Source of the DNA: Porphyromonadaceae bacterium
GTDB taxonomy: Bacteria > Bacteroidota > Bacteroidia > Bacteroidales > Porphyromonadaceae
Length of the DNA stretch: 32,208 nt
NCBI GenBank assembly: GCA_030528555.1
Contig: JAUMYQ010000018.1
Span: 1-32,208, forward strand
Direction of reading: 5' to 3'
Under the pieces are notes generated by a model. It did not search any database. It had not been told where the DNA came from and saw nothing but the letters and a program-made list of their open reading frames with translations. Of the stretch, positions 1,390 through 31,102 are shown piece by piece. Numbering within the stretch: position 1 is the first letter of the stretch; each line of letters begins with the position of its first letter. Made by a program: the position numbers and the translations under genes.

Positions 1390-4300
1390 TTACTGCGTGA
1401 GGTTGAAGCGCATGCTTACCCCGAAGGAGGTATTGCGCACAGGGAAAGAGGTCGCGCTAACGAGGGGGCGGTTGCTGTTCCACTCGTAGTAGGCCTTTAG
1501 GCTAAGCATACGGCTGAGGTCGTACTCTGCGCTGAGGCTGATGCGGCTATTGAGATTGCCTGCATTGGCCTGCGAATAATCCTCCTCTATCTTGCGGATA
1601 AGGCTCAGGCTATGGCGGTAGCTATAGTCTGCCCGTAGGTTGATGCCTTTGGGGTTGTTGCTCGCTGTTTGGTGACGACTTCGTCGGCCTCTGGCTGGGC
1701 TAAAGAGGGCGCGTATATCAGCGATCTTATAGCTTGCTCCGAGGCTTACCTCGTTGCTGCTCGTTTCGATAAGGCGGAAGGCCGAGAGATTGAGCGTAAT
1801 GGAGCGGTTTTTCCGCCATTGTCCCGTCATCGTGAGCCCATTCGAGAAGCTTACATCCACGCCAAAGAGGGGAAAGAAGCTCTCCTGAACTGTAATGGAG
1901 GCGATGTCGTAGGCGAGGCTTAGGCGAGGCTTGGGCGAGGCAGCATCAGGTACGAAGCCCAGAGCCGAAGCTTCGTTGCCCAGCCAGCCTGGAAATGAGC
2001 CGTAGTTGTCTATGCGGTACGTCCCCCGATAGGTGTGTCTTAGGGTGACGTTGGAGAAGAGTTTCTTCAGGGCTGGTATCTTGCCTAGACCACTATAGGA
2101 GATACTCCAGTTGGGCAGGATGGAGAGTAGGCGTGGGATTGGAGAGAGGGCAATGCCATCTGCCCCACCACTCTGTGTATAAGCTGCTCGGAATGCAGGG
2201 ATAAGCACGGCGGAGCTATTCTTGTCCAGCTGATAGCTACCCTCTTTGATGGATGCTCCTCCCAGCCCAACCTCGCTGAGGAAGCCCGCATTGGGGTAAG
2301 CTCCTCCCTCTACCTGCCTTGAGAGGCGAGAGGCGATGCGCTCACGAGCTGCGAGAAATGCGTCAAATTGAGGAGAGCGGTAGCCGTCCTCGGCCTGAGG
2401 TATGGAGAAGAAACCACGCAGGCCAATGGTTGTCATGACGAAGTCTCCGCCGTATAAGCGTGGACGACCCTCATACATATACTGGTGCTCTATGCGATTT
2501 GTATGAGTGTGGTTGGCCGTTAGGTTGATGTTTAGATCCTTGATTGGCTGGAGCGTTGCTCGTAGGTCGAGGACAGTTGCTTGGGAGAAGATAGCTGGGC
2601 GGACGTTCTCCAAGTCGCGTGATAACCAGCCTTGATTGGCTGCTTCGTCTATATAGTTTTCGCCCGAGAGGCCGAGGGCGAAGCCAAGCCCTGGAGCCAA
2701 TCCTGTACTGTGGTGGCTCTGTCCGAAGGCTGCCCCCACAGTGGGAAGGAAGCCTGGTAGCTGTGTCGATGTCGTTTCGCGGTAAGATAGCCCTATATCT
2801 TTGATCATTGTGAGGGTATAGACCGTTCTGTCTAGTAGATTTTGCCAAAAGCTTTCGCTAGCCTTCTTGAGGAGAGGCACGATCGTCAGGCTGATCTTTT
2901 GGCTATCGGCACGTAGCAGCTCGATGCTTTTGTCATCTCGTACCCGATATTTAGGTAGAGGGAGGATGCGCCCAGTGCTGTCCTTGGCCACTAGGCGCAG
3001 ACGCTTTGTTCCTAGACCGTGGGTAACTAGGAGGGTAGAGTCAGGCTTGAGGGTGAGGGTCTTAACAAAGTTCTTTGGCTTGGTCTCTGTTTTTTTAGTC
3101 TTCGGCTTCGAGTTGGCGGTAAATCTCTGCTCAAGGGCTTTGAGATACTTACTCTTGGCGTAGAGACTTCTTAGGCGGAGTTGGACGTTACTCTCGAGGC
3201 TCATCTGGTTGCTTACCACATTGGGGAGGCGCTCGGTCCCTATAGCACTACCATCTGCTCCCAAGGCCCAGTTGTACATCCCCGAGTAGTTCATCTGAGC
3301 TGAGAGGAAGTTTAGGGTGGAGATAGAGCTTGTAGGTAGCGTGTAGGTTAGGGTTGTACTTTGAGTATAGCGCATGGGGGTGCCAAGATTGCGGATACTT
3401 TCGTTTACGGCACGCTTCCACTCAGCATAGCTATCTGGATTGAGTTGTTGATTGACCTGCACATGTGGCTCCTCTATGCGTGCATCTGTGCCAGTCGATA
3501 ACCCAAAGATGAGGTTAGGGCTGAGGTTCCAATTGATATTGAGTTTCCTATACCAAACGAACTGTTGGCTAAAGCTCACTGGGAGTTTTGCCCCCTCCGC
3601 AGCATCGAGGTGGTTGCGCAGCTGTTCCTCCTCGTAGGAACGCAGCAGGAGGGTCTGGAGGTTGAGCCTACTTGGCCAGAGGTTTAGGCCATATTGCTTG
3701 AGGTAGTTCGCGAGCGAACCTTGGCCCTTGAGAGAGGAGAAGGGGCGGATAGGTCGCCACTGTGGGCTAAAATCGTAGGTTAGGCCTGCCTGCCAGTTCA
3801 CCTGATGCTGGTATTCGATCTGTGGCGTCTGGCTCTCGGTGTAGCTGTGTGAGAAGGTCGCCGAGAGGTTGGCTGGGTCGTAGGGCATGGGTTCCTTACT
3901 GCGGATGCCGATGCTCGCGTTGCTTAGGCTGATGGAGCGAGTGAGCCGCCTGTCGAGTGCGTAGTCCAGCACCTCTTGGCGTTGCTGATCGCTCCTTGCA
4001 CTCGAGAGGGCATCGGAGAGCAGTACGTCTTCGTCCATCGGGTTGTACTGAGGTGTTTGCCGCTCTTCGCTGATGGCGTAGTAGAGGGGTAAGGAGACCT
4101 TGGCTTTCTCTGGGAAGAATTTACCGAGCTCCAGGTTTGTGGCCAGGCTCAGGCTGCGGCGGTCTTCGAGCTGTCTCTCGGAGAGGGTTTGGTCTATTGC
4201 CCCAAAGCCAGCGGTCGACATTTGACCTCGTAGTGTTACCGAGCCGAGGTCCGAGAGTTGCATCCCGAGGTTGGCATTGGCCGCCCAGCCACCCTCTTCA

Positions 4301-7300
4301 TGGTAGTCCCCTACACGTAGCTCATTGACCCACACCTCGATGCTACGCACCTGGCCACTGTTGTTCCTTAGTCCGATCATGATGGTGCGGACATTGGAGA
4401 GAGAGGGATTACCGAGGACGCTGATGCTATTCTTTGTTGCGGTGGGGTCGCTCTGAGTATAGAGGTCGTAGAGGGATGCTCCAGGCGAGGCCGTTGAGAG
4501 GAGGCTATTGCGCTGTCGTTTGAGGGTAACAAGCTCATCGAGGTTGATATCTACGAAGTTGGCATTTGGCCAGACGCGCCTCTGATCTGCCTCGGAGAAG
4601 CCGTTGTACTGGCCAGCAGCTGTTAGTTTCAGAGGAACAGAGTATTCGTAGTAATTGTTCCGGTAGTCCGACCCTAGGCGTATGAAGAGGGAAAGCTCGC
4701 CATCCTGCGTCTGCGTATCGTCTTCGACTAGCTGCTCGGCGTGGGCGAATAGCTGGAGGCGACGGTAGCGGCGCAGGTCGAAGCTCACGTTGCGGTAGAC
4801 GGCCCGTGCATCGTCTGGGGCAAGTCCTCGTAGCTTGAGGCTCATGGCTTGCTCGTTGAGCTGCGTGCTCTGTGTCTGTTGGGCATCTAGAGATCGTGGC
4901 ACACCTGGGGGGAGGACGTAGTTGATGGGCGAGCGGTCACCGTCCGCCTCGATATTGACAGCACTGACCGAAAGCTGCGCTGTGGAGATGGGGGCAACCC
5001 TGCCGTGCATGGGCTGGTCATACTGTCGCCAGTCTCCTCGTACCAGGGCGAGCGAGCCGAAGCGCAGATTGGTCTGCTCGGCAAAGCCCTTGAGGTATAG
5101 GCGCATGAATCTCATAGAGCGCAGGTCGGATATCCCCCCGATGGCGGAAGAGTATTGCCCAAGTGGCACCTTAAATTGGTACCAATTGACTCGGGAGGTC
5201 TGGCCATTGCGTAAACGTACCTCGGCCTCTCGTTTGGCTACAATGAAGTTTTGGCCTACTTGTAGGTCTTGTGGGCGGAGAGAGACCTTGTATTCGTAGT
5301 AGCGGTCTAGCTCGTTGAGATTGTTGTCTTGGTTGATGTCCTCTACATCGGGTGACACACGGCTCGCTACACTGTAGGCACTATTGCCACTGGCTTCGGC
5401 GGAGTTGCCCTCAGTGCCGTTGTAATATTTGTATCGGTCGATGATGGGCAGGCGAGCTGCGTCATAGTCCTCGCCTCGGTAGTGATGGAAGTTATCGCCC
5501 CCTGGGTCTCTCAGTGGGCTAAATGGGTCATCGCTCCACCGGCTCACGACTTCGCCCGAGAGGATGCCTCTGAGGCGACTTAGATAGCTTGCGTAGCTCT
5601 CGTGGCTATGCTCCTCGGTGGTGCTTAGGCCGTTGAGACCAACGTCCTGACGAGCTCGAGCCCCTGGGGCGTTATCGAAGGAGTAGCCCACGCTCTGTCT
5701 GGTGGGGATTTGTCCCCAAATCGTGGGTTGCATGGCCCCTGGTTCGCTAGAGACGGGGATACCATTCTCAAAGAACTTCTTCTCGTCTTTCAATATATCT
5801 TCCGAAATATCCCCAAGGTTGATGTAGAGGTCGCCTCCCTTGGGCGCACTGCCCTGACTGTGGACGAAGGGGTCCATGAGCCAAAATTCCAGATATTCGA
5901 CATTACTGCTCTCAAAGTCCGCTTGGTCGATTTTGCGCATGATGCCTGCCCAGCTCTCTTCGGGCCGAGCGAGCCGCCCAGTTGGGAGCATTCTGTCCGT
6001 ACCCAGATTGTAGGGCCCACGTTCCTCGGGATAGTAGCTTAGACTGAGCGTCTGGAGGAAGCTAATTTGGGTGGCGTTTAGGTCGCGATAGGGGAAGAGC
6101 TCTCGAAACTCCACCTCACGGACGAAGTGGTTGCTTACGAGGTCGGGGTTGTTCCTGATGTAGGATGGTGTCAGGCTGCTGCGCTCTCGGGTAAAGATGG
6201 GGTCGATGGTGTACCACGAGAGGTGAGCTCGGTCGTAGCCCGTGGCTAGATAGTCTTTTGGGGAGGCCAGGCGATGGTTTGGGTCGTAGGGTACGGAGGC
6301 GAGGCTCCAGGCGTAGGAGTTCATCAGGTCGATGGTGCTCCTTGATGACTCGAAGTCGTCTAGGTAGCTATTACCCTGGGCATAGCGGCTCTCGTAGTGG
6401 CCAGGCAGGAGGTGGGCGAACTCGGCATCAAGGCTAATAGTGCTCGGCGTGGAGAGGTCGAGCAGGGGGACTTTGTTCAGCACATTGGTTAGCCACTGGC
6501 TCTTGGCTCTCCAGCTGAGGTTCGCCCCCCAGAGAAAGTTGCGCATGGACTCATCACCGAGGTTTGTCTTGGTCGTTAAGGGGAGCTCCGACAGATACAT
6601 GGCTGTCGCCCCGAGCTGTAGGTTGCGCGTTAGCTGGTAGCCCATATCCACCCCGAGCATCGTTTTGCGCTGCGTGCCGAAGCCGCCACCGTCCTCGAGG
6701 CTGACCTCGATGGGGGTACGTGCGTTCTGGATCTGGGTGTTGATTATTCGTACAATACCCGATAGGTAGTCTACGGTGTAGTCCACATTCTCCACTAGGG
6801 TCACTCCCCCAGCCGTGACGCGTACGGTGCCAGGCGTGACGTTGAGCGATCCGAGTGAGATTTCTCCACTACCTGCAGCCTTGTATTCGCCACGAAGGAT
6901 GAACTTGTTCTTCTCGGCTACTTGTTGCGCCCGTACCTGAGTTTGGTTGTAGAGCTCACTATAGATGTATTCACTACCAGCACCCTTGTCTTTGAGCGTC
7001 TGGCCAAATGGCTCAAGGGTGGGGAAGTAGATGAGGCCGTAGCGGGTGTTGACTGTGAGCCCCTCGACATAGTCGAAGCGGCCATCAGCGTGTTGCTCCT
7101 GTCGGGCATTTAGCTTGTCGAGGCCCAGCACTTGTAGCAGCCGTTCGCCCTTGAGCGGTCCACTAGGCAGATAGGGCAGGTAGCTCCCAGTAGCATCGCT
7201 GCGGTAGAGGATCTCGAGCCTAAAGCCCTCGGCCTCGAGGTTGTACACCCCCGAGCCGAGGCTGTAGACATTACGCATCATGTTGCTCCAGTAGGGAGCT

Positions 7301-8793
7301 TCGGGGCTCATGTTGCTGCCCTTGATGAGCTTGACGTAGAGGTTCTCTGTGGCCTTGTCTGGGCGGTCGCTGGAGAATTCACCCACACGATACAGCTTGC
7401 CCTGGTAGGTGTATTCGTAGGCCACGGCCAGCACCTCGTCACTCTGAAGCTTGGAGGCGAGACTGAGGTAGCCGAGGCTGGAGTTGAGGTCATATTCGCT
7501 TTCGGAGAGCCGGCGAGCGGACTCCAGCTTGTCGTAGTCGCTGCCAGCGGTCAGCATACCAGACAGCCCTCGGCTCACTTGATCTATCTGGCGCAAGTCC
7601 GTTCGCTCTGCCACGGTACTGTAGAGGCTGTTGGCTTCATTGCGAGGTAAGGGAGAGCCTCCAGGAGTGAGGCTGATGTTGGGGCTGTGTACGCGCCCAG
7701 CCTCCCCGAGGTCGGTGAAGGCTACCACGTTGCGAGCATCGTCATAGCGACCGCGCTTGTTCGTCACCCAGACCTCAACTCGGTTGATTTGTACGGCCGA
7801 GCGGACGTAAGGTAGGGAGCTCATGGCCGAGTTGTACTGCTGGCGAAAGAAGTCCGAGAGGAAGAAGTGTCTATTCTCGTCATAGCTTGCTACGGACACT
7901 TCAAACTCTCTCGTCTGTGCTCCGCCCTTGGTGGCGATGCGCTTGCGCTCGGTACGCTGCTGGCTGGCGATCATGTCGAGGGTTAGTCGCCCAAACTGAA
8001 GCTTGCTATGGATGCCGAAGAGCGCACCACCGCCATTGATGAGTGAGTTTTTGGGCTGCATGGACACGTTGCCGGCCTCGATGAGCTTGATGATGTCATC
8101 CTCCTCGCCCTCGAAGGCGAGCTTGAGCTTCTTGGCATCGAAGTCGAAGGTGCTGGCCGTGTTGTAGTTTAGGTTGAAGTTTAGCTTGTTGCCGACCGAG
8201 GCTTGTACACCTGCCTGAATTTTCTCGTCGAAGTCGAAGAAAGTATTGCGCCGTGCTCGCTCATTGACCGAAGGGTTATCCGTGGCATTGCTCTTGACCC
8301 CAGCGGAGATCTCGGCCGAGCCCTGTAGACGCATCTTCACGCCACCTGGCCCGAAGATGCGCTCTGCCACACCCAGGCCAAACTCCATATTTAGGGGGTT
8401 GAAGCCCTTCTTCTTCTCCTCCTCGGGGCGGTTGAGCTGACCAAAGTAATAGGCATCGCTGCGCCGAGCTCGGTATGCTCGAAACTCCTCTGGTGTATAG
8501 GGAATGGGTACACCGAGGGGTACATCGCCAAGGTAGGTGGTTAGGAAGTAGAGGTTGCTCTGTGGGTCATAGTCGAAGACGGTGCGCAGGTTACTCGGGC
8601 GACGTGGAGCATAGACCGAGGGCTCGGTGAGGGCTTCTGCACTCGTCTGTGGCAGCATGAGGCGTGGGGAGACAACGCGCAGGCTATCTCCCGAGGCAGT
8701 TTGCGCTCCGAGCAGTGAAGCGACTAGGGTCTGCCATATCACGACGAACGCCCACAGCCAGTACCTCTGTGAGCAACCTCTATACCGAATCAA
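1390..8793 (-). CDS. sprA: SprA/Sov, type IX secretion system outer-membrane translocon
   Basis: This 2467-residue protein matches the size of P. gingivalis Sov and flavobacterial SprA, which form the very large outer-membrane beta-barrel through which type IX secretion cargo leaves the cell. Visible support includes a signal peptide ending near LLGAQ (about residue 31) and a family-typical block at about residues 255-350 (GGGALFGIHSKLQFGRL, then SYDENRHFFLSDFFR and VEVWVTNKRG). Long alternating beta-strand sequence reaches to the C-terminus, which ends in an aromatic outer-membrane-type strand (GVSMRFNLTQ). The start is a TTG codon at 8793: a TAA stop lies directly upstream in frame, and the first in-frame ATG would delete the signal peptide. 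A TAnnTTTG promoter element lies 24 bases upstream. No frame disruption is visible. Confidence 0.95.
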   Translation of the reverse strand: MIRYRGCSQRYWLWAFVVIWQTLVASLLGAQTASGDSLRVVSPRLMLPQTSAEALTEPSVYAPRRPSNLRTVFDYDPQSNLYFLTTYLGDVPLGVPIPYTPEEFRAYRARRSDAYYFGQLNRPEEEKKKGFNPLNMEFGLGVAERIFGPGGVKMRLQGSAEISAGVKSNATDNPSVNERARRNTFFDFDEKIQAGVQASVGNKLNFNLNYNTASTFDFDAKKLKLAFEGEEDDIIKLIEAGNVSMQPKNSLINGGGALFGIHSKLQFGRLTLDMIASQQRTERKRIATKGGAQTREFEVSVASYDENRHFFLSDFFRQQYNSAMSSLPYVRSAVQINRVEVWVTNKRGRYDDARNVVAFTDLGEAGRVHSPNISLTPGGSPLPRNEANSLYSTVAERTDLRQIDQVSRGLSGMLTAGSDYDKLESARRLSESEYDLNSSLGYLSLASKLQSDEVLAVAYEYTYQGKLYRVGEFSSDRPDKATENLYVKLIKGSNMSPEAPYWSNMMRNVYSLGSGVYNLEAEGFRLEILYRSDATGSYLPYLPSGPLKGERLLQVLGLDKLNARQEQHADGRFDYVEGLTVNTRYGLIYFPTLEPFGQTLKDKGAGSEYIYSELYNQTQVRAQQVAEKNKFILRGEYKAAGSGEISLGSLNVTPGTVRVTAGGVTLVENVDYTVDYLSGIVRIINTQIQNARTPIEVSLEDGGGFGTQRKTMLGVDMGYQLTRNLQLGATAMYLSELPLTTKTNLGDESMRNFLWGANLSWRAKSQWLTNVLNKVPLLDLSTPSTISLDAEFAHLLPGHYESRYAQGNSYLDDFESSRSTIDLMNSYAWSLASVPYDPNHRLASPKDYLATGYDRAHLSWYTIDPIFTRERSSLTPSYIRNNPDLVSNHFVREVEFRELFPYRDLNATQISFLQTLSLSYYPEERGPYNLGTDRMLPTGRLARPEESWAGIMRKIDQADFESSNVEYLEFWLMDPFVHSQGSAPKGGDLYINLGDISEDILKDEKKFFENGIPVSSEPGAMQPTIWGQIPTRQSVGYSFDNAPGARARQDVGLNGLSTTEEHSHESYASYLSRLRGILSGEVVSRWSDDPFSPLRDPGGDNFHHYRGEDYDAARLPIIDRYKYYNGTEGNSAEASGNSAYSVASRVSPDVEDINQDNNLNELDRYYEYKVSLRPQDLQVGQNFIVAKREAEVRLRNGQTSRVNWYQFKVPLGQYSSAIGGISDLRSMRFMRLYLKGFAEQTNLRFGSLALVRGDWRQYDQPMHGRVAPISTAQLSVSAVNIEADGDRSPINYVLPPGVPRSLDAQQTQSTQLNEQAMSLKLRGLAPDDARAVYRNVSFDLRRYRRLQLFAHAEQLVEDDTQTQDGELSLFIRLGSDYRNNYYEYSVPLKLTAAGQYNGFSEADQRRVWPNANFVDINLDELVTLKRQRNSLLSTASPGASLYDLYTQSDPTATKNSISVLGNPSLSNVRTIMIGLRNNSGQVRSIEVWVNELRVGDYHEEGGWAANANLGMQLSDLGSVTLRGQMSTAGFGAIDQTLSERQLEDRRSLSLATNLELGKFFPEKAKVSLPLYYAISEERQTPQYNPMDEDVLLSDALSSARSDQQRQEVLDYALDRRLTRSISLSNASIGIRSKEPMPYDPANLSATFSHSYTESQTPQIEYQHQVNWQAGLTYDFSPQWRPIRPFSSLKGQGSLANYLKQYGLNLWPSRLNLQTLLLRSYEEEQLRNHLDAAEGAKLPVSFSQQFVWYRKLNINWNLSPNLIFGLSTGTDARIEEPHVQVNQQLNPDSYAEWKRAVNESIRNLGTPMRYTQSTTLTYTLPTSSISTLNFLSAQMNYSGMYNWALGADGSAIGTERLPNVVSNQMSLESNVQLRLRSLYAKSKYLKALEQRFTANSKPKTKKTETKPKNFVKTLTLKPDSTLLVTHGLGTKRLRLVAKDSTGRILPLPKYRVRDDKSIELLRADSQKISLTIVPLLKKASESFWQNLLDRTVYTLTMIKDIGLSYRETTSTQLPGFLPTVGAAFGQSHHSTGLAPGLGFALGLSGENYIDEAANQGWLSRDLENVRPAIFSQATVLDLRATLQPIKDLNINLTANHTHTNRIEHQYMYEGRPRLYGGDFVMTTIGLRGFFSIPQAEDGYRSPQFDAFLAARERIASRLSRQVEGGAYPNAGFLSEVGLGGASIKEGSYQLDKNSSAVLIPAFRAAYTQSGGADGIALSPIPRLLSILPNWSISYSGLGKIPALKKLFSNVTLRHTYRGTYRIDNYGSFPGWLGNEASALGFVPDAASPKPRLSLAYDIASITVQESFFPLFGVDVSFSNGLTMTGQWRKNRSITLNLSAFRLIETSSNEVSLGASYKIADIRALFSPARGRRSRHQTASNNPKGINLRADYSYRHSLSLIRKIEEDYSQANAGNLNSRISLSAEYDLSRMLSLKAYYEWNSNRPLVSATSFPVRNTSFGVSMRFNLTQ

Positions 8794-8981: not shown

Positions 8982-9019
8982 AAATTCAATCACGATTTGT
9001 ATAAATCGTGATTGAATTT
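8982..9019. repeat. 17-bp perfect inverted repeat
   Basis: Bases 8982-8998 (AAATTCAATCACGATTT) and 9003-9019 are perfect inverted copies around the four-base centre GTAT. The structure lies in the 407-base stretch without genes between divergent sprA and the beta-galactosidase gene. It could be a regulator-binding palindrome or an RNA hairpin. No regulator is identifiable. Confidence 0.8.
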
Positions 9020-9058
9020 ATATAAACCGTGATTGGATTTGTATAAATCGTGTCACGG
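8995..9058. repeat. Three 21-bp tandem units
   Basis: Units begin at 8995, 9016 and 9037, each with the form ATTTrTATAAAyCGTG. The first two continue ATTGA and ATTGG, while the third diverges after CGTG into TCACGG. The 21-base period equals about two helical turns, so equivalent sites would face the same side of the DNA. They overlap the 17-bp inverted repeat. The remainder of 8794-9200 holds the sprA promoter and no gene. Confidence 0.75.
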
Positions 9059-13610: not shown

Positions 13611-14741
13611 CTAAGATCGTCCACCCGTTAGCACAGCCATAAGCCTTGGGCTGAGTTTATTGATGAATTTGTAGCCTATGATACAGACAGCAATAGTTAG
13701 CACGACCCCAGCAAAGTAGGCAAAGAGCTGCCAGTAACCCGATGTACTACCGAGGGTAGAAAGTATACGATTGATCATCTTGTTGATAACGAGCGTATGG
13801 GTCACATATACGAAGAACGAAGCTGGAAGGCAGTAGCGACAGAGCTTTATCCATAGATGAGGGAGGCGATAGGACCGTTCGGCTTGACTAAGCCGATACA
13901 CCCAAGTAGTAGCATTCAGCACTAAGGCTATACCTAGTGGAATGTACAGGCGTATGAGATACTCTACCTGAGGATGCTGATTGTTGAAGAGGGCCAAGAG
14001 CAAGAGCACTGTGAGTGTTAGGGTGATGGCCCAGCGATAACGATGGCAGAGCTCCAAAATATCGACTTTGTTTCTACCGCAATAGATGCCAGCCCCTACG
14101 TAGAGTATAGCTGTACTTCCAAAGCCTGGGATAGGTAGCTCGAGCCCCAGAAGGTAACCGAGGTAGAGGAGCAAAATACCCCATCCTCGGGTGTACTTAA
14201 ATAGGTAATAGAAGAAGGGCAAGATGAGGTTCATCCCGATGAGGTCACGGACATACCAAAGGGGAAAGTTGACTGGCTCGATAAGGTGCCTCCACAGAGG
14301 CGTGGCTAGCATTGCTAACTCTTCATCATAGACCTCTAAGCCAACTCGACCAGAGAGCTTGACCTTGAGGAAGTAAATCCCAAGGCAAATTAAATTCCAA
14401 AGGATGTAGGGAATGAGGAGGGTGTGAGTTTTCTTTTTAAGGTTATGGAGGTAGAAGCTAGGTGTGTAGTCCTCTTTGTACAAAAGCCAGTAGCCTGAGA
14501 TGAAGAAAAAGAAAGGAACGGCTACTCTGCCGAAGGAGTGTGATATTAACTCACTGATAAACAGATAGATATACCCCCCCCCATTTGTTGCGCTATGGAT
14601 TAGTTCTGAGAGGCTTAGTGGCAAGGGTACGGGATGGATAACGTTGTTTAGGGTGTGGATGAAGACTACGAGTACCATCATCGGCCACTTGGCTAGGTCG
14701 AAGACGGTAGATTGCTCCTTGAGATAATAGTTTGTATACAT
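13611..14741 (-). CDS. Acyltransferase family 3 membrane protein, with G9 tract
   Basis: The 376-residue multi-spanning inner-membrane protein belongs by pattern to the acyltransferase 3 family (OafA/WecH-like), which O-acylates surface sugars or lipids. Seen are the early histidine in VLVVFIHT, FFFFISGYWLLY, and about ten hydrophobic segments. An upstream ATG at 14768 overlaps mnmG by 13 bases. I prefer the ATG at 14741 because its N-terminus (MYTNYYLKEQ) aligns with the start of the paralogue at 26704 (MDTKLLLQSR). Nine consecutive G on the coding strand (14574-14582) encode the Gly triplet of ATNGGGYIY, a segment that has no glycine run in the paralogue. As read, the frame is open. The gene follows mnmG by 14 bases and is probably cotranscribed. 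The natural substrate is unknown. Confidence 0.88.
   Translation of the reverse strand: MYTNYYLKEQSTVFDLAKWPMMVLVVFIHTLNNVIHPVPLPLSLSELIHSATNGGGYIYLFISELISHSFGRVAVPFFFFISGYWLLYKEDYTPSFYLHNLKKKTHTLLIPYILWNLICLGIYFLKVKLSGRVGLEVYDEELAMLATPLWRHLIEPVNFPLWYVRDLIGMNLILPFFYYLFKYTRGWGILLLYLGYLLGLELPIPGFGSTAILYVGAGIYCGRNKVDILELCHRYRWAITLTLTVLLLLALFNNQHPQVEYLIRLYIPLGIALVLNATTWVYRLSQAERSYRLPHLWIKLCRYCLPASFFVYVTHTLVINKMINRILSTLGSTSGYWQLFAYFAGVVLTIAVCIIGYKFINKLSPRLMAVLTGGRS
14574..14582 (-). repeat. G9 homopolymer inside acyltransferase coding sequence
   Basis: Nine consecutive C on the plus strand are nine G in the mRNA, about 55 codons after the start. A gain or loss of one base would truncate the protein early. 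Tracts of this kind in surface-modification genes are known phase-variation sites in other bacteria; here variation is inferred. Confidence 0.85.
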
Positions 14742-14755
14742 TGATTTTTTAGGGA

Positions 14756-16636
14756 TTATCGGCCACAAAGGACGAGTAGCACGCTCACATCATGGGGAGA
14801 GATGCCAGGGATACGCGAGGCTTGACCGATAGTTTTGGGGCGGATGGCCTCGAGCTTTTGGCGTGCCTCGGTAGAGAGGGACTGCACATTGGCAAACGAA
14901 AGGTGCTCGGGGATGTGGACATATTCTAGTCGCTCTAGCTTCTCGGCTTGCTCGCGCTCGCGCTCTATGTAGCCACTATACTTGATAAGTATCTCGGCTG
15001 CTTCGATGATCTCGGCTCTTCTGCTCTCGGGTATGCGCTCCGTTTGTCTTTGCAGTGCACTGATAATGGGGATTAGTCGCTCAAAGCTTAGCTGAGGCCT
15101 TAGGATGAGGTCGTAGAGCTTTACGCCTTGTCTTAGAGGGGTGAGCCCCTCTGCTTCGAGGAATGGGTTGATGGAGGTAGGTCTTACCGAGTAGCTCTGT
15201 GTGAAGGCTATGAGTTCATCGCGGAGCCTTCGTTTCTCCTCTAGATACTCGATGCGCTCCTTGGTTGCTAGTCCCAGATCGGCCGATCGGGGAGTGAGAC
15301 GCATATCGGCATCATCCTGGCGTAGCAGGATGCGATACTCGGCACGTGAGGTAAACATGCGGTAGGGCTCGTCTACTCCCTTAGTCACAAGGTCGTCTAT
15401 TAGCACACCTATGTATGCCTCGCTACGGCTGAGTGTAAAAGGGGCAAGCCCATGCACGCTCTGGTGGGCATTGATGCCAGCGATGAGTCCCTGGCCAGCG
15501 GCTTCTTCATAGCCTGTGGTACCGTTGACCTGGCCAGCTAGAAATAGGCCAGGAACAAGTTTGCTCTCGAGTGTATGATGCAGTTGGGTGGGGTCGAAGA
15601 AATCATATTCGATAGCATATCCTGGCCGATAAATCTTGACATTACGGAGCTCGGGGATTTGCCTCAAGGCCTCAAGCTGCACGTCCATCGGGAGGGAAGA
15701 GGAGAAGCCGTTGATGTAGTATTCGTTGGTCTCCTCTCCCTCTGGCTCGAGGAAGAGTTGATGCTTGTCCTTGTCGGCGAAGGTTACGATCTTCGTCTCG
15801 ATACTTGGGCAGTAGCGTGGACCAATGCTCTGAATTTGCCCATTGTAGAGGGGTGACTTATCTAGTGCTGCTCTTAGTACAGCGTGGCAAGCCTCGTTGG
15901 TATATAGGCTGTAGCAGGGGCGTTGCTTGAGGGGGCTGCGCTGCTGGGTGGGCATATACGAGAAGCGATGATGCCCCTCCTCGCCGTACTGCACACCCAT
16001 TTCGCTGGGGTCGAAGCTACGCCCATCGATGCGTGCTGGCGTGCCTGTCTTCATCCGATCCACCCGAATGCCGAGGCTGCGCAACTGCTCGGTGATGCCG
16101 TGCGAAGCAGGCTCCGAGATGCGTCCCCCCTCGAGCTTATGCTCCCCGAAGTGCATCAGCCCACCGAGGAAAGTCCCAGCCGTAAGTATCACGGCAGGGG
16201 CGAGGAAGCGCGCCTGAAGTGACGTCACTACACCTACTACCCTACCCTCTTCGATGATGAGGCTACGTACACCATCCTGCCAAATGTCGAGGTTTGGCTC
16301 GGCATCCAACTCTTGTCGCCATGCTTCCATGAAGCGCATACGGTCGCTCTGCGCCCGAGGGCTCCACATAGCTGGCCCCTTACTGCGGTTGAGCATGCGA
16401 AACTGTATGGAGGTCTTATCTGCAATGAGCCCCATTCGTCCACCGAGCGCGTCAATTTCACGGACTATTTGCCCCTTGGCAATGCCCCCAATGGCTGGGT
16501 TGCAGCTCATCTGCCCAATTTTGTTCATGTCAAGCGTGATGAGCAGCACCTTTGAGCCAAGGCGTGCAGCAGCAGCAGCGGCCTCGTTGCCAGCATGCCC
16601 CGCACCAATCACTATTATATCGTAGTTGCTAGTCAT
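14756..16636 (-). CDS. mnmG: tRNA uridine-5-carboxymethylaminomethyl modification enzyme MnmG (GidA)
   Basis: The 626-residue FAD enzyme works with MnmE to modify the wobble uridine (U34) of certain tRNAs in the cytoplasm. The N-terminus has the dinucleotide-binding pattern IVIGAGHAGNEAA (about residues 8-20). The family signatures CNPAIGGIAKG (about residues 45-55) and GQVNGTTGYEEAAGQG (residues about 365-380) are present, and the C-terminal helical domain ends ISPHDVSVLLVL. Length is normal for the family. The start ATG is unambiguous. A TAATTTTG promoter element lies about 60 bases upstream. The downstream acyltransferase begins within 14 bases of the stop, forming a likely two-gene unit. 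Confidence 0.97.
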   Translation of the reverse strand: MTSNYDIIVIGAGHAGNEAAAAAARLGSKVLLITLDMNKIGQMSCNPAIGGIAKGQIVREIDALGGRMGLIADKTSIQFRMLNRSKGPAMWSPRAQSDRMRFMEAWRQELDAEPNLDIWQDGVRSLIIEEGRVVGVVTSLQARFLAPAVILTAGTFLGGLMHFGEHKLEGGRISEPASHGITEQLRSLGIRVDRMKTGTPARIDGRSFDPSEMGVQYGEEGHHRFSYMPTQQRSPLKQRPCYSLYTNEACHAVLRAALDKSPLYNGQIQSIGPRYCPSIETKIVTFADKDKHQLFLEPEGEETNEYYINGFSSSLPMDVQLEALRQIPELRNVKIYRPGYAIEYDFFDPTQLHHTLESKLVPGLFLAGQVNGTTGYEEAAGQGLIAGINAHQSVHGLAPFTLSRSEAYIGVLIDDLVTKGVDEPYRMFTSRAEYRILLRQDDADMRLTPRSADLGLATKERIEYLEEKRRLRDELIAFTQSYSVRPTSINPFLEAEGLTPLRQGVKLYDLILRPQLSFERLIPIISALQRQTERIPESRRAEIIEAAEILIKYSGYIEREREQAEKLERLEYVHIPEHLSFANVQSLSTEARQKLEAIRPKTIGQASRIPGISPHDVSVLLVLCGR

Positions 16637-16820: not shown

Positions 16821-17120
16821 ATGCGCATCGTTTCACACAGAAAACTGGTAGAATACTATCAATCCCCAGGACGAGAAGACAGCCGTACCGCCCTAGAGCG
16901 GTGGTATCAGATCGCTCACAGAGCACAATGGCAAAGCCTCTCGGACATAAGAGTGGACTTCCCCTCGGCAGACTATGTGGGCAATCAGCATTACGTCTTC
17001 AATATTCGGGGCAATTGTCACCGCCTTGTCGTCGTGGTTAAATTCACTATCTCTACCATCTTTGTGCGCTTCATAGGTACGCACGCCGAGTATGACAAGA
17101 TAGATTGTAGCACCATCTAA
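16821..17120 (+). CDS. higB: HigB family toxin (mRNA interferase)
   Basis: The 99-residue protein matches the HigB_toxin family of ribosome-dependent mRNA-cleaving toxins. Recognisable stretches are ERWYQIAHRAQWQSLSDIR (about residues 26-44), VFNIRGNCHRLVVVV (about 58-72) and the conserved end VRFIGTHAEYDKID. The toxin-first order followed by an HTH antitoxin 11 bases downstream is the hallmark of higBA. The length is typical and no disruption is visible, so it should be functional. The start ATG lies just downstream of a palindrome-containing promoter. Confidence 0.92.
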   Translation: MRIVSHRKLVEYYQSPGREDSRTALERWYQIAHRAQWQSLSDIRVDFPSADYVGNQHYVFNIRGNCHRLVVVVKFTISTIFVRFIGTHAEYDKIDCSTI

Positions 17121-17131
17121 CTCATCAAGCA

Positions 17132-17497
17132 ATGAAAACGAACCCAACAAAAGCCCAATACGAATATGCGCTCAAGCGCATCGAAGAGCTGCTCCCCATC
17201 ACACCCGAAACACTGGCGGCTAACGACCCTCTAATGCTCGAGCTATCGCTGCTCTCTGCCGTAGTGGAGGAGTACGAACTAGAGCATTACCCCATAGAAG
17301 CCCCTAGTGTGGCAGCCGTCATTCTCTCCGCCCTATCCGAAAGAGGGATGACCCAACGCCAACTTGCCGAGGCTATAGGTGTCAGCCCCTCGCGCATCAG
17401 CGACTATGTAGCAGGCAGAGGCGAGCCATCGCTGAGGCAAGCTCGGCTCATCTGTCGCTGCCTAGACATTAGCCCTGCGGCTATGCTGAGGCTGTAG
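17132..17497 (+). CDS. higA: HigA family antitoxin, HTH Xre type
   Basis: The 121-residue protein has an N-terminal helical region (residues 1-60) and a C-terminal Xre helix-turn-helix (about residues 73-115; MTQRQLAEAIGVSPSRISDY followed by PSLRQARLICRCLDI). It should bind and neutralise HigB and repress the operon. The gene starts 11 bases after higB, in one transcript. The N-terminal extension ahead of the HTH is characteristic of HigA partners of this toxin family. Confidence 0.9.
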   Translation: MKTNPTKAQYEYALKRIEELLPITPETLAANDPLMLELSLLSAVVEEYELEHYPIEAPSVAAVILSALSERGMTQRQLAEAIGVSPSRISDYVAGRGEPSLRQARLICRCLDISPAAMLRL

Positions 17498-25375: not shown

Positions 25376-25503
25376 TTACAAGGGTACCCCATTTTTGAGA
25401 AAAAAGTTCCCGATCTTTTGAAAATTTCTTCCCGATCTTTTTCCAAAAAGTTCCCGAAGTTTTTTTTGAAAGTTCGGGAACATTTTTTCGCTCATTCGAG
25501 AGG
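25376..25503 (+). repeat. Dispersed intergenic element, copy 3 (long form) with 22-bp units
   Basis: The first 32 bases equal the reverse complement of 1-32. TTCCCGA then occurs at 25407, 25429 and 25451, and its inverse TTCGGGAA at 25473, an exact 22-base period. The last pair (25450-25458 and 25473-25481) forms a 9-bp inverted repeat with a T-rich loop. The tail ATTTTTTCGCT, then TTCGAGAGG, matches copy 2. The element fills the gap between the TPR operon promoter and the 3' end of the second acyltransferase. Confidence 0.85.
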
Positions 25504-25516
25504 TTTTGTATTTATC

Positions 25517-26704
25517 TTATAGACAGTATGATATATTTTTTTGAGATAGATGCTCGTCTTCAGAGATGTAGGGGTTGGATTTTGAGGCATTGAGCCCTCT
25601 TTCAGTCAGCTTCGCTCCCTTACCTAGGATCTGCCTCCTGTCAGTAGTCCTAGTAAACGAGGGCAAAGGCTGCGCATCGCTTGATAACCCACGAGGCAGA
25701 TAAGAATTGTAAACGTAGGCGTTAGGAAATAGGGTATCAAGGCAAGAGCTCCGTTTTGTGGCCCCAGGCGACCTAGACCTGCGATGACCCAATTGACGAT
25801 GTAAACCGTGTGTGGCGTAGACGAAGAATACAGTGCCCAGGAGATAACGGTAGACCTTGTTCATCTGTGTGTCCTCCCTTGAGGTTGTGCACATTAGGCT
25901 TCGAGTGATTTGTAGCGTGGTCACGACACCCATGGGGATGTATAGCCTATAGAGATGCTCCGCCCAGCTCTCCTGATTGTAGAAAAGGCTTACGACAATG
26001 AGGATGGCAGAGAGTACCCCGATGATGTATCTGTATCGGAAGGTTAGCGCAAGGATATCTAGTTGGCGCATCCCGCAGTATGCACCGAGGCTAACGAAGA
26101 AGACGGATGTGCTGGAAAATCCAGGATGCTCTGGCAAAAGACATAGGCAGTAGCCAAGGGCAAGTAGAGCCATGCCCCAAGCTCTTAAATATTTACTTAC
26201 GAGAAAGATAACAGGGGCGATGAGATTCATGCAAATGAGATCCCTGAGGTACCAGAGTGGGTAGTTGAGCGAGTCGATGAGATGTGCCCAAAGTGGCTTG
26301 GCGAGTGTCTCTATCTCGTAGTCGTAGGCTGTGATGCCAACTCGTGCTCCTAGGTTGACTTTAGCCCAAATTAGCCCCCAATAGATGAAGTTCCAGGCCA
26401 AATAGGGCAGGATGAGCGTTCGTGCCTTTTTCTTCAGATTGGCTGTGTAGGTCCCGAGGTCGTAGCTGTCGGGTTGCTTGAAGAAGAAAAAGTATCCCGA
26501 GATGAAGAAAAATGTCGGTACCGCGATGCGACCAATGTTGTGAGATATAAGCTCCGTGACGAAGTGATAGAGGTTGTTTCCATCAAGCGAAAGTCCGACA
26601 GGAGCAGCAGGCTCGGGGATACTGTGAATGAAAACAACTAGAACGATGAGAGGCCATCGCACAACATCCATTACCCTAGACTGAAGAAGTAGTTTTGTAT
26701 CCAT
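25517..26704 (-). pseudogene. Acyltransferase family 3 paralogue, frameshifted at a CA repeat
   Basis: The open frame codes for 395 residues. Residues 1 to about 300 align with the acyltransferase at 13611-14741 (VLVVFIHS, FFFISGYFFFF, PLWYLRDLICMN). After VYATHGL the sequence becomes hydrophilic and unrelated. In the next frame the nucleotide sequence continues as VYIVNWVIAGLG... and ends LLTGGRS, matching the VLTGGRS end of the paralogue, with a stop at 25624-25626. Adding one CA unit in the CCACACACGG tract near 25807-25816 restores a 360-residue protein including the YATHT motif. The gene is thus either switched off by slippage or a recent pseudogene. A TACCTTTG promoter element lies upstream. 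Confidence 0.85.
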
Positions 26705-26914: not shown

Positions 26915-26962
26915 TAGTATGGTTTGTAATACGCCCAAGATATCAAATTAGTGAATTCGTTG

Positions 26963-27841
26963 ATGAGTGCAAAGCCTTTTGTCAAGTGGGTTGGAGGAAA
27001 AACACAACTCCTACCTGATATAGAACACCGACTTCCTTCCGACTTTAGCCGTAGAGATATAACCTATGTGGAGCCGTTCGTTGGCGGAGGAGCGGTCATG
27101 TTTTGGATACTTCAACGCTACCCCAATGTCCAGCATGCCGTAATTAACGACATCAACCCTCGACTAATCAACGTATATCGGACGATCAAGGCTTCGCCCT
27201 ATGAGCTTATCGAGAGCCTTACTAGGCTTGAGGAAGAATATCTCCCCCTCTCTCATGAGGAGCGAACGGCTTATTTTGGCGAAAAGCGTAAGAGATTTAA
27301 CGATTTTACCCTACCCTTGATAGAGTCGGCTACCCTGTTCATCTTCCTAAACCGGACATGCTTCAATGGCTTATATCGGGAGAATGCCAAGGGATTGTTC
27401 AATGTTCCCCACGGTCGATACGCTCGCCCAAAAATTTGTGACGAGGCAACAATCCTCGCAAACTCGAAGATTCTACAGAGAGTAGAGATACTCTGTGGAG
27501 ATTTCTCCGAGACTATTAAATATGCCTCTCAAAACTCCCTTTTCTACTTCGACCCTCCATATAAACCTCTGAGCGAAACATCATCGTTCAATGCCTATGT
27601 CAAAGAGCCTTTTGATGATGTGGAACAAATCCGTCTTCGAGATTTCTGTCATAGGGTCGTTGAGCGAGGTAGTCAATTCATCCTAAGCAATTCCGATCTC
27701 AAAGGGAAGAACCCCTCAGATGATTTCTTTGATCGGCTCTATGAAGACTATGATATTAGCAGGGTTTTCGCCACAAGGATGGTCAATGCCAAGGCAGATA
27801 AGCGAGGTAAATTGACCGAACTTTTGATTTCGAATTTCTGA
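26963..27841 (+). CDS. dpnM: D12-class adenine-N6 DNA methyltransferase (DpnM-like)
   Basis: The 292-residue enzyme methylates adenine, most likely in GATC, protecting host DNA. The N-terminus has KWVGGKTQLL (about residues 8-17), followed by the AdoMet-binding EPFVGGGAV (37-45) and the catalytic DPPY (197-200, FYFDPPYKPL). The C-terminus has the family-typical ILSNSD. The frame extends upstream to a GTG at 26951, but I prefer the ATG at 26963, which sits just before the conserved block. Its neighbours, a DpnII endonuclease and a second methylase, set the specificity by association. Confidence 0.93.
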   Translation: MSAKPFVKWVGGKTQLLPDIEHRLPSDFSRRDITYVEPFVGGGAVMFWILQRYPNVQHAVINDINPRLINVYRTIKASPYELIESLTRLEEEYLPLSHEERTAYFGEKRKRFNDFTLPLIESATLFIFLNRTCFNGLYRENAKGLFNVPHGRYARPKICDEATILANSKILQRVEILCGDFSETIKYASQNSLFYFDPPYKPLSETSSFNAYVKEPFDDVEQIRLRDFCHRVVERGSQFILSNSDLKGKNPSDDFFDRLYEDYDISRVFATRMVNAKADKRGKLTELLISNF

Positions 27842-27877
27842 ACCTATGGCTTATTAGGGCAAAAGCAGACAAAAAAG

Positions 27878-28753
27878 ATGGAAAAAACAAAGACTTCTAG
27901 AGCCGAGGAGTTTAAGCTTTTTATGGCACAATTAAGGAAGACCAATACGACACTTGGTTTTTATACCGATTTCAAAAAATGCTACGACAACGTAGATCTA
28001 ATTGCTGCCCGGCTTCATGCCCTCAATTTTTTGATAGGAAAAGATGACATCAGAGAGGCCGTCCACACCTTATGGGAAGAAAATCCGAAAGTATTTGGGG
28101 TGCTTGACATCCTGATAGCCGTTCGTACGAGAGACAAGAAGCTCGCTATTAATCGAGAAGGCGAGGTTCAGCCCATTGAATACTATTTTAAAACCGAGGC
28201 AGGAGTCGTGGAGTATCTCCGAGAGACTGGCCTCGAGGGGGTGTTGCGTAGCAAGAAGATTAGCAATCTCGTGGACTATGTATTTGGGATTGAGGTAGGG
28301 CTTGATACCAATGCTAGGAAGAACCGCAGTGGCCATATCATGGAGGCAACAGTAGCTAGCCTACTAAGCAAGGCTGGCATCGACTTTCGGCAGGAGGTCT
28401 ATTCGCATGAATTTCCTACGGTACATCATGTCCTTGGCTTAGACAATAAGCGTTTTGATTTTGTGGTCTCAACATCTCAAAAGACCTACCTCATAGAAGT
28501 AAATTTTTATAGCAGTGGTGGCTCCAAACTTAACGAAGTTGCTAGATCCTACACGGAGATTGCTCTCAAGATAAATGGCTGCAAGGGCTATGAGTATGTT
28601 TGGATTACAGACGGTATCGGTTGGCAGAGTGCCAGGGGGAAGCTAGAGGAGGCATTCTACTCTATACCTAGTGTTTACAATCTGACAACGATTAAGGAGT
28701 TTATTCAAATGCTACAGCTAGAAGCTCTTTCCCTTAGCCCTAACGGACTATGA
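27878..28753 (+). CDS. dpnB: DpnII-type restriction endonuclease (GATC)
   Basis: The 291-residue protein matches the DpnII/MboI endonuclease family, which cuts unmethylated GATC. Characteristic stretches are the helical N-terminus (FKLFMAQLRKTNTTLGFYTDFKK, with LNFLIG at about 49-54) and the catalytic region RFDFVV to YLIEVNFYSSGGSKLNEVARSY. Asp194, Glu207 and Asn209 occupy the nuclease metal-binding positions, a PD-(D/E)xK variant. WITDGIGW follows. The gene is complete. It starts 36 bases after the first methylase and overlaps the second by 4 bases (ATGA), so all three are one operon. Confidence 0.93.
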   Translation: MEKTKTSRAEEFKLFMAQLRKTNTTLGFYTDFKKCYDNVDLIAARLHALNFLIGKDDIREAVHTLWEENPKVFGVLDILIAVRTRDKKLAINREGEVQPIEYYFKTEAGVVEYLRETGLEGVLRSKKISNLVDYVFGIEVGLDTNARKNRSGHIMEATVASLLSKAGIDFRQEVYSHEFPTVHHVLGLDNKRFDFVVSTSQKTYLIEVNFYSSGGSKLNEVARSYTEIALKINGCKGYEYVWITDGIGWQSARGKLEEAFYSIPSVYNLTTIKEFIQMLQLEALSLSPNGL

Positions 28754-29652
28754 TAGAACCGTTCTTTCGATCAGACGACCGAGACTTTACCCTACTTCAG
28801 GGAGATTGCATCACTTTGCTAAATCAGTTTGACTTTAAGTTCAATATGATCTTTGCCGATCCCCCATATTTCCTGAGCAACGGTGGAATAAGTTGCCAGA
28901 ACGGAAAGGTGGTCAGCGTAGACAAAGGAGCTTGGGATAAATCTCGAGGACGAGAGGAGGACGAATTGTTTAATTACAACTGGATAAAAGCTTGCCGAGA
29001 CAAACTCGCAGACGATGGGACAATCTGGATAAGCGGTACCTATCACAATATATTTAGTGTAGCAAACTGTCTGACTACCCTTGGCTTCAAGATACTTAAT
29101 GTCATCACATGGGCAAAGACCAATCCCCCTCCTAATATCTCGTGTCGGTACTTTACTTACAGCTCTGAATTCGTTATTTGGGCAAGAAAATCCAAGAATA
29201 GACCTCATTGCTTCAATTATCAATTAATGAAAGCTATGAATGGAAATAAGCAGATGACCGATGTCTGGAGCTTACCAGCCATTGCACCGTGGGAAAAGAG
29301 TTGTACTAAGCATCCCACTCAAAAGCCATTGGGACTACTTAGTCGTATCATCTTGGCCTCGACCAGGCCGAGAGATTGGATTCTTGATCCCTTCGCTGGT
29401 AGTAGCACTACGGGCATAGCTGCCAATCTTTTTGGACGTAGATATCTAGGTATAGAGCAAGAGTTGTCGTTTTTGGAGATTTCCAGATCGAGGCGTGGAG
29501 AAATAGAAAGCTTAGAGAGAGCTACTTGGTATCGAGATAAGGTGTTGAAACAGCTGAGAAAGTATGCAGGCGATACAGAGCAATCCCTGGCAATAGACGG
29601 AGCTTTAGCTGTGATAGGATTTGATGACCTAGAGGTCGTATTGCCATTTTAG
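28750..29652 (+). CDS. dpnA: Second adenine-N6 DNA methyltransferase (DpnA-like)
   Basis: The 300-residue protein is a beta-class adenine methylase. DPPY (residues 37-40, IFADPPYFLSNGG) precedes the AdoMet-binding DPFAGSSTTG (213-222), and KHPTQKP lies at about 187-193. This motif order differs from the D12 enzyme upstream. In S. pneumoniae the equivalent DpnA also methylates single-stranded DNA; applying that here is an inference. It is translationally coupled to the endonuclease by an ATGA overlap. The order methylase - endonuclease - second methylase differs from pneumococcal dpnM-dpnA-dpnB. Confidence 0.92.
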   Translation: MIEPFFRSDDRDFTLLQGDCITLLNQFDFKFNMIFADPPYFLSNGGISCQNGKVVSVDKGAWDKSRGREEDELFNYNWIKACRDKLADDGTIWISGTYHNIFSVANCLTTLGFKILNVITWAKTNPPPNISCRYFTYSSEFVIWARKSKNRPHCFNYQLMKAMNGNKQMTDVWSLPAIAPWEKSCTKHPTQKPLGLLSRIILASTRPRDWILDPFAGSSTTGIAANLFGRRYLGIEQELSFLEISRSRRGEIESLERATWYRDKVLKQLRKYAGDTEQSLAIDGALAVIGFDDLEVVLPF

Positions 29653-29830
29653 TTGAGGAGTAGTCTGGTGAGGGAGCTGATTTGTCTTGTTTTTTACAGG
29701 ACAACCGCATTGAAATAGAATCGTCTGATAATCGTTAGGTATTTTTATGCCAAAACTCTTAGAGTCAGAGAAAGTAAAGATAGTATAGATGCGCTTGCCT
29801 TGTCCTAACACTTCTTTCGCATCTTTACTC

Positions 29831-29838
29831 TAAATTTG
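29831..29838 (+). promoter_or_regulatory. Promoter -7 element facing the invertible segment
   Basis: TAAATTTG matches TAnnTTTG and points towards 29986. If the segment 29986-30480 were reversed, it would drive the glycosyltransferase with a leader of about 150 bases. In the present orientation it reads antisense to the N-terminal fragment. The rest of 29653-29925 shows an imperfect GATGCG/CGCATC inverted repeat (29788-29823) and no credible gene. Confidence 0.5.
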
Positions 29839-29925
29839 TATTTGTTTCTTGAATTTGTTTGATTTTTTTGGACTTTGATGACGAGTACTTGAAGGTTGCT
29901 CTAGTGAAGAGTATGCCTATTAGAC

Positions 29926-30468
29926 TTATGAATGTGTTGCTCTAAAACAGTTAGAGATGTCTGTTCGATAAGACTTGGATTGAATATATAATGTATTATG
30001 AGAATATCCCTCTTCCTTGCCTAGACGATAGGTATAGTGTTTCCTAGAAGTTTCTTCATACACTTCATCATACTCATAGTAAACAACATCTACTTGTGGT
30101 TTTCGTTTGAATACCTCAATACATCTCCTATACAAATCTAAGTCTATCCAATCATCACTATCAACATAGGCAATATAAGTACCAGAAACTCTATCCAATC
30201 CATAGTTTCTTGCCGAAGAAAGTCCACCATTAATCTTGTGATAGACTTTTATGCGATTATCGCGATCTGCATATTGATCACAAATATCCCCTGAAGAATC
30301 AATGCTTCCATCATCAACTAGAATTATTTCAAGATGAGGATAAGTTTGATTTATAATACTATCAAGACATCGAGGCAAAAACTTCTCCACGTTATACACA
30401 GGAACAATCACAGAGATTAATCCATTCTCGGGTGTTACACTCATTTGCAAAGGCATTTTATCAACCAT
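29926..30468 (-). pseudogene. N-terminal half of a family 2 glycosyltransferase
   Basis: The 180-residue fragment has the GT-A fold start of a family 2 glycosyltransferase: LISVIVPVYNVEKFL, the DDGS motif, the nucleotide-sugar metal motif in YVDSDDW (about residues 103-109). Family members continue for another 170 or so residues, which are missing here. The real homology ends at about residue 161 (HNTLY), inside the left inverted repeat, and the last 19 residues are unrelated. The start ATG lies inside the right inverted repeat. No promoter is evident in this orientation: upstream lies the antisense of the C-terminal half. This is best read as the 5' half of a gene on an inverted segment. Confidence 0.85.
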
Positions 30469-30480
30469 AATACATTATAT
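29986..30480. repeat. Putative invertible segment bounded by 15-bp inverted repeats
   Basis: ATATAATGTATTATG (29986-30000) and its reverse complement (30466-30480) are perfect 15-bp inverted repeats exactly bounding the N-terminal half of the glycosyltransferase. Reversing the segment brings that half directly upstream of the C-terminal half on the plus strand and behind the TAAATTTG promoter element. After reversal the two halves are out of frame by one base. The first stop would be at 30505-30507, unless an A is lost in the AAAA run at 30494-30497, which would give a protein of about 342 residues. No recombinase gene is in the window. Confidence 0.75.
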
Positions 30481-31027
30481 GATGAATTGCTTCAAAAGTA
30501 TGTCTAGGGGACATTATAATCCCGCTGTGTGGAATAAGATTTATAAGGCATCGGTTGTTCGTGACCTTAGGTTTGCTGATGGAAGAAACTATGAGGATGT
30601 TGTATACACATTCTTAGCCTCAGTACTAGTTCGAGGTTATAGTCTTGTGGCTGCTCCGGGAGAGTATACAGGATATTTTTATAACAGATCTAATGTAACA
30701 TCTATAAGTTATCGCTTAGGTGTAGATATAGCAGATTTATATGAGCAGTTGTTTGACATATATGATTTGCTTGAGAGGACGGCTCCTGAGTTGCAGCCAT
30801 ATGTTGGTTCTCTTGCTTACAGGGAAATCATAAATCAGAATATAAACTTCTCAAAAGATGACGAGGAAATAACACGGATGATGAAGAGCTATGCCAAGCG
30901 TGTAGCCAGAATGAAGCAGTTGCCATCATTGCTTTTTAAAGATAAGTTAAAGCGAGCTTTTCTCCGTGCGTTTCCAGGTTTATTCGTTTTGTGTTTTTGT
31001 AAATGGATTCCAAGATACAAGGGATAA
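30479..31027 (+). pseudogene. C-terminal half of a family 2 glycosyltransferase
   Basis: The 182-residue fragment begins with a few non-homologous residues, then has the typical second half of family 2 glycosyltransferases acting on surface polysaccharide: GHYNPAVWNKIYK, LRFADGRNYEDVVYTF, YFYNRSNVTS and a basic C-terminal tail (CKWIPRYKG). It lacks the entire nucleotide-sugar-binding domain, which is encoded on the opposite strand just upstream. The ATG pair at 30479-30484 overlaps the inverted repeat. The tract is visibly richer in A and T than the sprA or mnmG genes, consistent with transfer. Confidence 0.85.
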
Positions 31028-31072
31028 TAGGGCTTTGTAATGTATTGACATTAAACTTTTTGGAGCCAACTC

Positions 31073-31102
31073 TTGTGGATCGGAAAATAAATCGTAAATT
31101 TG
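31073..31102 (+). promoter_or_regulatory. Promoter for rpsH-rplF
   Basis: TAAATTTG (31095-31102) matches the -7 consensus, and a TTG at 31073-31075 sits 19 bases upstream as a -33 candidate. The start of transcription would lie about 120 bases before rpsH. A promoter here fits the absence of the normal upstream ribosomal genes. Confidence 0.65.

What the first reader, a model, noticed from the sequence alone, without database searches (positions are those of the whole stretch)
29986..31027. Glycosyltransferase gene split by an apparent DNA inversion
The N-terminal half of a family 2 glycosyltransferase is on the minus strand and the C-terminal half on the plus strand, head to head. The N-terminal half is bounded exactly by perfect 15-bp inverted repeats (29986-30000, 30466-30480). 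Reversal would place the halves in tandem behind a TAAATTTG promoter element at 29831. This is the form of a site-specific on/off switch acting inside a coding sequence rather than on a promoter. The reversed halves are still off by one base, with an AAAA run at the joint. There may therefore be a second slippage control, or the gene has decayed. No recombinase is nearby.
Basis: partly seen in the sequence, partly recalled or inferred. Interest (0 to 1): 0.85.

Follow-up and report, generated by a model that had tools for sequence, protein, structure and literature searches.

The report
Sugar-transferase gene split by DNA inversion
A gene for a likely surface-sugar enzyme has had its first half flipped round between two short mirror-image DNA repeats, which switches it off; as assembled, the two halves would still be out of step if flipped back, so it may be a stuck on/off switch or simply a dying gene.

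Summary
A family 2 glycosyltransferase (GT2) gene lies in two head-to-head halves. The N half (minus strand) matches positions 3-146, and the C half (plus strand) positions 155-314, of a 326-position profile of intact relatives. The N half sits between perfect 15-bp inverted repeats, 29986-30000 and 30466-30480. None of 3000 shuffles of the two breakpoint neighbourhoods gave a repeat that long. One 495-bp inversion between the repeats is the simplest reading. Whether it is a programmed, reversible switch is not shown. The 15-mer occurs nowhere else in the held assembly (0 or 1 mismatch), no second orientation could be looked for in reads or strains, and no relative searched carries the gene. 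The genome has 11 tyrosine-recombinase matches and no serine-recombinase match; none lies in this contig. The two halves are in different frames, so neither orientation of the assembled sequence encodes a full-length enzyme. An acyltransferase about 3.3 kb away is also frameshifted. Within-gene inversion in Bacteroidales is already described (PMC12632263, section 11). I file it as a new instance of an inverted-repeat-bounded intragenic inversion, not as a demonstrated on/off switch.

The parts
29986..30000 (+). left arm of the 15-bp perfect inverted repeat (holds a 5+2+5 dyad ATAAT-GT-ATTAT)
30466..30480 (-). right arm of the inverted repeat; contains the ATG (30468-30466, minus) that opens the N half
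29986..30480 (.). 495-bp segment inferred to have been inverted
   Evidence: opposed halves of one GT2 plus repeats at both breaks; the inversion itself is inference
29926..30468 (-). N-terminal half of a GT2 glycosyltransferase (180-aa ORF; profile match 30432 to 29995; the part beyond the left arm is read-through past the break)
   Evidence: PF00535 E 8.6e-38; profile 3-146
30479..31027 (+). C-terminal half of the same glycosyltransferase (182-aa ORF; similarity begins at 30491-30506)
   Evidence: paralog match E 2.0e-30; profile 155-314
29831..29838 (+). TAAATTTG, possible -7 promoter element (weak)

Best explanation
A GT2 glycosyltransferase gene, probably for a cell-surface glycan, was split when the 495-bp segment 29986-30480, carrying its start codon and first ~156 codons, inverted by recombination between two 15-bp inverted repeats, one at the start codon and one inside the coding sequence. 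In the present orientation no full enzyme can be made, because the N-terminal catalytic domain and the C-terminal part are on opposite strands: the gene is off. I think the likeliest agent is a tyrosine recombinase acting in trans, as in other Bacteroidales inversions. The frame mismatch just beyond the right repeat means that, if the sequence is right, the gene is now locked off even if the segment flips back. Shown: repeats, halves, frames, no serine-recombinase match in the held assembly. Inferred: the inversion, its agent, its reversibility, the glycan role.
For: Perfect repeats at both homology breaks; 0 of 3000 shuffles. The halves cover profile 3-146 and 155-314 of one protein. The intact 324-aa paralog in the same genome shows the undivided order. 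GC skew is negative where the inverted segment lies (-0.13 at 29800-30399) and positive on both sides, which fits a reversed coding strand but follows from the ORF direction. A scan of 93 fetched loci for complementary opposed halves found 5, all copies of this same place. 11 tyrosine-recombinase matches in the genome, 0 serine. Within-gene inversions in gut Bacteroidales are stated in PMC12632263 section 11.
Against: No second orientation seen. The 15-mer is unique to this site: besides the two arms, one search found 5 look-alikes with 2 mismatches, against 2 for the reversed-pattern control. In 9 stretches holding 10 of the 11 recombinase matches the only inverted repeat of 14 bp or more is one pair in L068, about 5.7 kb from its recombinase and unlike this one; the locus of the 11th has none. 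The halves are out of frame. A neighbouring acyltransferase is frameshifted too, so general decay is a simpler story for the frame. The assembly is 85.6% complete in 42 contigs, so a recombinase or second site could be missing.
Confidence: 0.5

Rival explanations
1. One-off inversion in a decaying gene: the segment flipped once between short AT-rich repeats (template switching or illegitimate recombination, no dedicated recombinase), killed the gene, and a frame lesion followed.
For: Frames differ; a second likely surface-glycan gene nearby is frameshifted; no cognate invertase or second site found; the stretch beside rpsH is low in GC and lies at a site whose upstream neighbours vary between relatives.
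Against: Both halves have no internal stop over about 156 and 182 codons, so decay is not old. Bacteroidales are rich in programmed inversions at surface-glycan loci (PMC12632263).
Confidence: 0.4
2. Programmed switch with a real 'on' state, the frame mismatch being a sequencing or assembly error in a draft genome. This overlaps with the best explanation.
For: Draft of 42 contigs, 85.6% complete; a single-base mismatch of frame separates the halves.
Against: From reading the ORF list, the other long genes of the window are open; only the acyltransferase showed a second frame break. This was not tested gene by gene.
Confidence: 0.2
3. Assembly artefact: the inverted join does not exist in the cell.
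For: No reads could be checked.
Against: A 15-bp repeat is far shorter than the overlaps assemblers use (general knowledge), so a false flip exactly at it is unlikely.
Confidence: 0.05

Closest known systems
Intragenic invertons (Chanin et al. 2024 Nature, 10.1038/s41586-024-07970-4; seen only as a citation; paper not held)
   Same: short inverted repeats bounding a segment inside a coding sequence; reversal recodes or truncates the protein (recalled)
   Different: no evidence here of both orientations; the assembled halves are out of frame either way
Gene-altering programmed inversions (Milman et al. 2023, 10.1093/nar/gkac1166; seen only as a citation; not held)
   Same: inversion that changes a coding sequence
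   Different: as I recall those systems, they mostly swap alternative gene ends with a recombinase nearby; here no alternative N half was seen and no recombinase is in the contig
Invertible promoters of Bacteroides capsule loci (PMC12632263, passages and section 11)
   Same: Bacteroidales, surface glycan genes, DNA inversion, a recombinase that can act on several sites
   Different: there the promoter flips and the genes stay whole; here the coding sequence itself is cut

Membership tests
Intragenic inverton | inverted repeats bounding a segment that overlaps a coding sequence | tested here: met
   15-bp perfect arms at both homology breaks
Intragenic inverton | both orientations present in reads or strains | not testable with these tools
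   one genome per species, no reads; no relative searched carries the gene; within 1 mismatch the 15-mer is only in this contig
Intragenic inverton | orientation changes the encoded protein | tested here: met
   present orientation separates GT2 profile 3-146 from 155-314
ON/OFF phase-variable gene by coding inversion | one orientation encodes an intact protein | tested here: not met
   frames of the two halves differ; the N-half frame closes at 30505-30507; tested on the frames of the assembled sequence only
Site-specific inversion system | cognate recombinase | tested here: inconclusive
   11 tyrosine-recombinase matches, 0 serine, none in this contig; 9 of the 11 scanned with Pfam; no site link found
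GT2 glycosyltransferase (PF00535) | family match over cut-off | tested here: met
   N half 130.3 bits against a cut-off of 23.3; C half has no Pfam match of its own and is tied in by paralog and profile

The most novel reading that the evidence does not exclude
A doubly locked surface-glycan switch: a trans-acting tyrosine recombinase flips the first half of a glycosyltransferase gene in and out of place, and a second frame change at the joint sets whether the joined gene is read, so only a small fraction of cells ever makes the enzyme.
Probability: 0.08. Interest if true: 0.65.

Novelty: new member of a known kind. Interest (0 to 1): 0.33.

Why it matters
If reversible, it would be a clean on/off inversion inside a glycan-synthesis gene rather than at its promoter. 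In the open-licence library I saw no such report for this group, in the papers found (2 and 3 papers, passages read); papers outside that library were not searched. If not reversible, it is an example of how short repeats break surface-glycan genes. Orientation-specific reads would decide quickly.

Tried and rejected
Close relatives of the locus: the DNA search of 61 genomes found, outside the own genome, the rpsH leader and short scattered matches. C-half protein searches of 38 family genomes and 393 order genomes found nothing closer than the own-genome paralog (the second at E 1e-15 only). Two scans of named genomes gave none and three distant relatives; two scans of viral contigs, one per half, gave none; plasmid DNA gave two distant Lactiplantibacillus matches. 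Scans from a single protein reach close relatives only. So no orientation comparison was possible.

Other split GT2 genes: a family search counted 400 GT2 matches in 38 genomes (my sum of the table) and listed only the best part of them. Among the listed rows I noted three with open frames under 240 aa: the window's and two in G011. Of those two, one (L092) is a same-strand frame break; the other (L093) has N-terminal-type frames on both strands that are not complementary halves.

Recombinase site link: 9 stretches holding 10 of the 11 recombinase matches showed no repeat like this one; the 3.5-kb locus of the 11th (L047) has no inverted repeat of 14 bp or more. An earlier repeat scan failed on coordinates.

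Misassembly beside the ribosomal operon: considered because rpsH is not preceded by rpsN here. Thought unlikely, since 5 of 8 other genus members inspected (of 25; chosen because their rpsH leader matched) also lack rpsN before rpsH.

Structure prediction and fold search were not used.

Full report
What is there. The window is a whole 32,208-bp contig (C35) of a 1.78-Mb draft in 42 contigs, 85.6% complete. At its right end a DpnII-type restriction-modification set (26951-29652) is followed by the split glycosyltransferase and then rpsH and rplF (the two ribosomal names are my reading).

The split gene. Minus strand 30468 downward carries a GT2 domain (PF00535, E 8.6e-38). The plus-strand ORF 30479-31027 has no Pfam match but is 32% identical (E 2.0e-30) to the C-terminal part of an intact 324-aa paralog elsewhere in the same genome. 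The profile was built from 16 intact ORFs, the paralog among them. Against it the minus-strand piece takes positions 3-146 and the plus-strand piece 155-314 of 326; of 99 stop-to-stop segments in 29600-31100 no other scores better than E about 2. They are therefore complementary halves of one enzyme. The N half is 56% identical to the paralog over the aligned columns. The paralog has solved relatives such as the putative glycosyltransferase GalT1 (5hea, E 4.2e-38).

The repeats. The arms are perfect over 15 bp with 465 bp between them. The right arm holds the start codon of the N half; the left arm holds the last residues that match the profile. Chance: 3 of 2000 shuffles of the 1574-bp region and 2 of 100 of the whole window give an inverted repeat this long with a spacer of 50-1500 bp. 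0 of 3000 shuffles of the two breakpoint neighbourhoods give it there. With longer spacers the window has one other 15-bp pair, inside a 2467-aa ORF, so length alone is not rare on that scale; the coincidence with both breaks is. Each arm has a 12-bp dyad, ATAAT-GT-ATTAT, which could be a recombinase site or simply AT-rich sequence.

Frame and promoter. Carried across the right arm, the frame of the N half reaches TAG at 30505-30507; the C half runs in another frame. So the assembled sequence has no state that encodes the full enzyme. The A run beside the joint is four bases long. TAAATTTG at 29831 is a fair -7 match (recalled consensus), but no -33 partner was found and the motif is common in this window (27 found, 12.8 expected). 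One more such motif (30500-30493, minus strand) faces the N half as it lies now, so the promoter argument does not choose an orientation.

Agent. The genome has 11 matches to the tyrosine-recombinase family, 10 over the cut-off and one with a stop inside, and none to the serine family. Two look like XerC and XerD (my reading of size, domains and neighbours). Of 9 recombinases scanned with Pfam, 5 have an Arm-DNA-binding domain as in mobile-element integrases; two on contig C38, of 308 and 298 aa, have none and are the most invertase-like by size (inference). None is in the window contig. No further copy of the 15-mer with 0 or 1 mismatch exists in the assembly. The agent is thus unknown; missing sequence could hold it.

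Setting. The site before rpsH is variable in the genus. Of 8 other genus members inspected (of 25 in the listing; chosen by their rpsH-leader match), 3 have an 89-aa ORF that I read as rpsN directly before rpsH, and 5 have no such protein in the 10-11 kb stretch fetched. One of the 5 (G001) has what I read as a methyltransferase and an endonuclease there (no family search was made). No S14 family match was found in the held assembly of this genome. The GT stretch is 34-40% GC in a contig of 51%, so it is probably a recent arrival.

Decay evidence. The acyltransferase at 25517-26704 matches its 45%-identical paralog (13611-14768) up to residue 301 and then loses the frame; the continuation is in another frame at 25624-25860. 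Two damaged glycan-type genes in one contig favour decay, relaxed selection or local sequence error.

Literature. A 2025 review states that invertible regions of gut Bacteroidales include within-gene inversions (PMC12632263, section 11 read in full; other passages). PMC11892184 and PMC10939037 mention gene-intersecting or intragenic inversions (passages). PMC11868660 cites PhaseFinder and PhaVa counts (passages). PMC13343947 describes an inverton by a capsule locus of Akkermansia (passages). The two primary papers on within-gene inversions were not held. A search for Porphyromonas with 'phase variation', 'inversion' and 'glycosyltransferase' gave three papers: PMC3989065, PMC12355684 and PMC8698959. 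I read passages holding inversion and phase-variation words in each, and none of those passages describes such a split gene. Four further searches gave no paper.

Verdict. The inversion is very well supported as a feature of the sequence. Its status as a live switch is open, and the frame mismatch counts against it as the sequence stands. I put a trans-acting, inverton-type event at 0.5 and a one-off event in a decaying gene at 0.4. The 0.2 given to sequence error at the frame overlaps with the first.

Noticed in passing
25517-26704 (minus): Acyltransferase-3 gene that loses its frame at about 25803; its C-terminal part continues in another frame (25624-25860). A paralog without the break lies at 13611-14768.
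   Followed up: partly
31227 (rpsH) and loci L045, L070-L076: The ribosomal operon is broken between rpsN and rpsH in 5 of 8 other genus members inspected, with different genes upstream of rpsH: a variable rearrangement site.
   Followed up: partly
26951-29652: DpnII-type restriction-modification set (two adenine methyltransferases and a DpnII endonuclease), lower in GC than the contig as a whole.
   Followed up: partly
16821-17497 (plus): Two small genes matching PADLOC PD-Lambda-2 A and B models (toxin-antitoxin-like pair); the B match covers only positions 9-118 of a 402-position model.
   Followed up: no
L092 929-2948: In relative G011 a GT2 gene is in two overlapping same-strand frames (1960-2550 and 2493-2948): a plain frame break, without inversion.
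   Followed up: partly
8995-9052 and 25400-25488: Short tandem repeats of 21 and 22 bp between genes, the latter with AAAAAGTTCCCGATC-like units.
   Followed up: no
4563-4577 and 6996-7010: A second perfect 15-bp inverted repeat, 2418 bp apart, inside the 2467-aa ORF 1390-8793; no sign of inversion was looked for.
   Followed up: no
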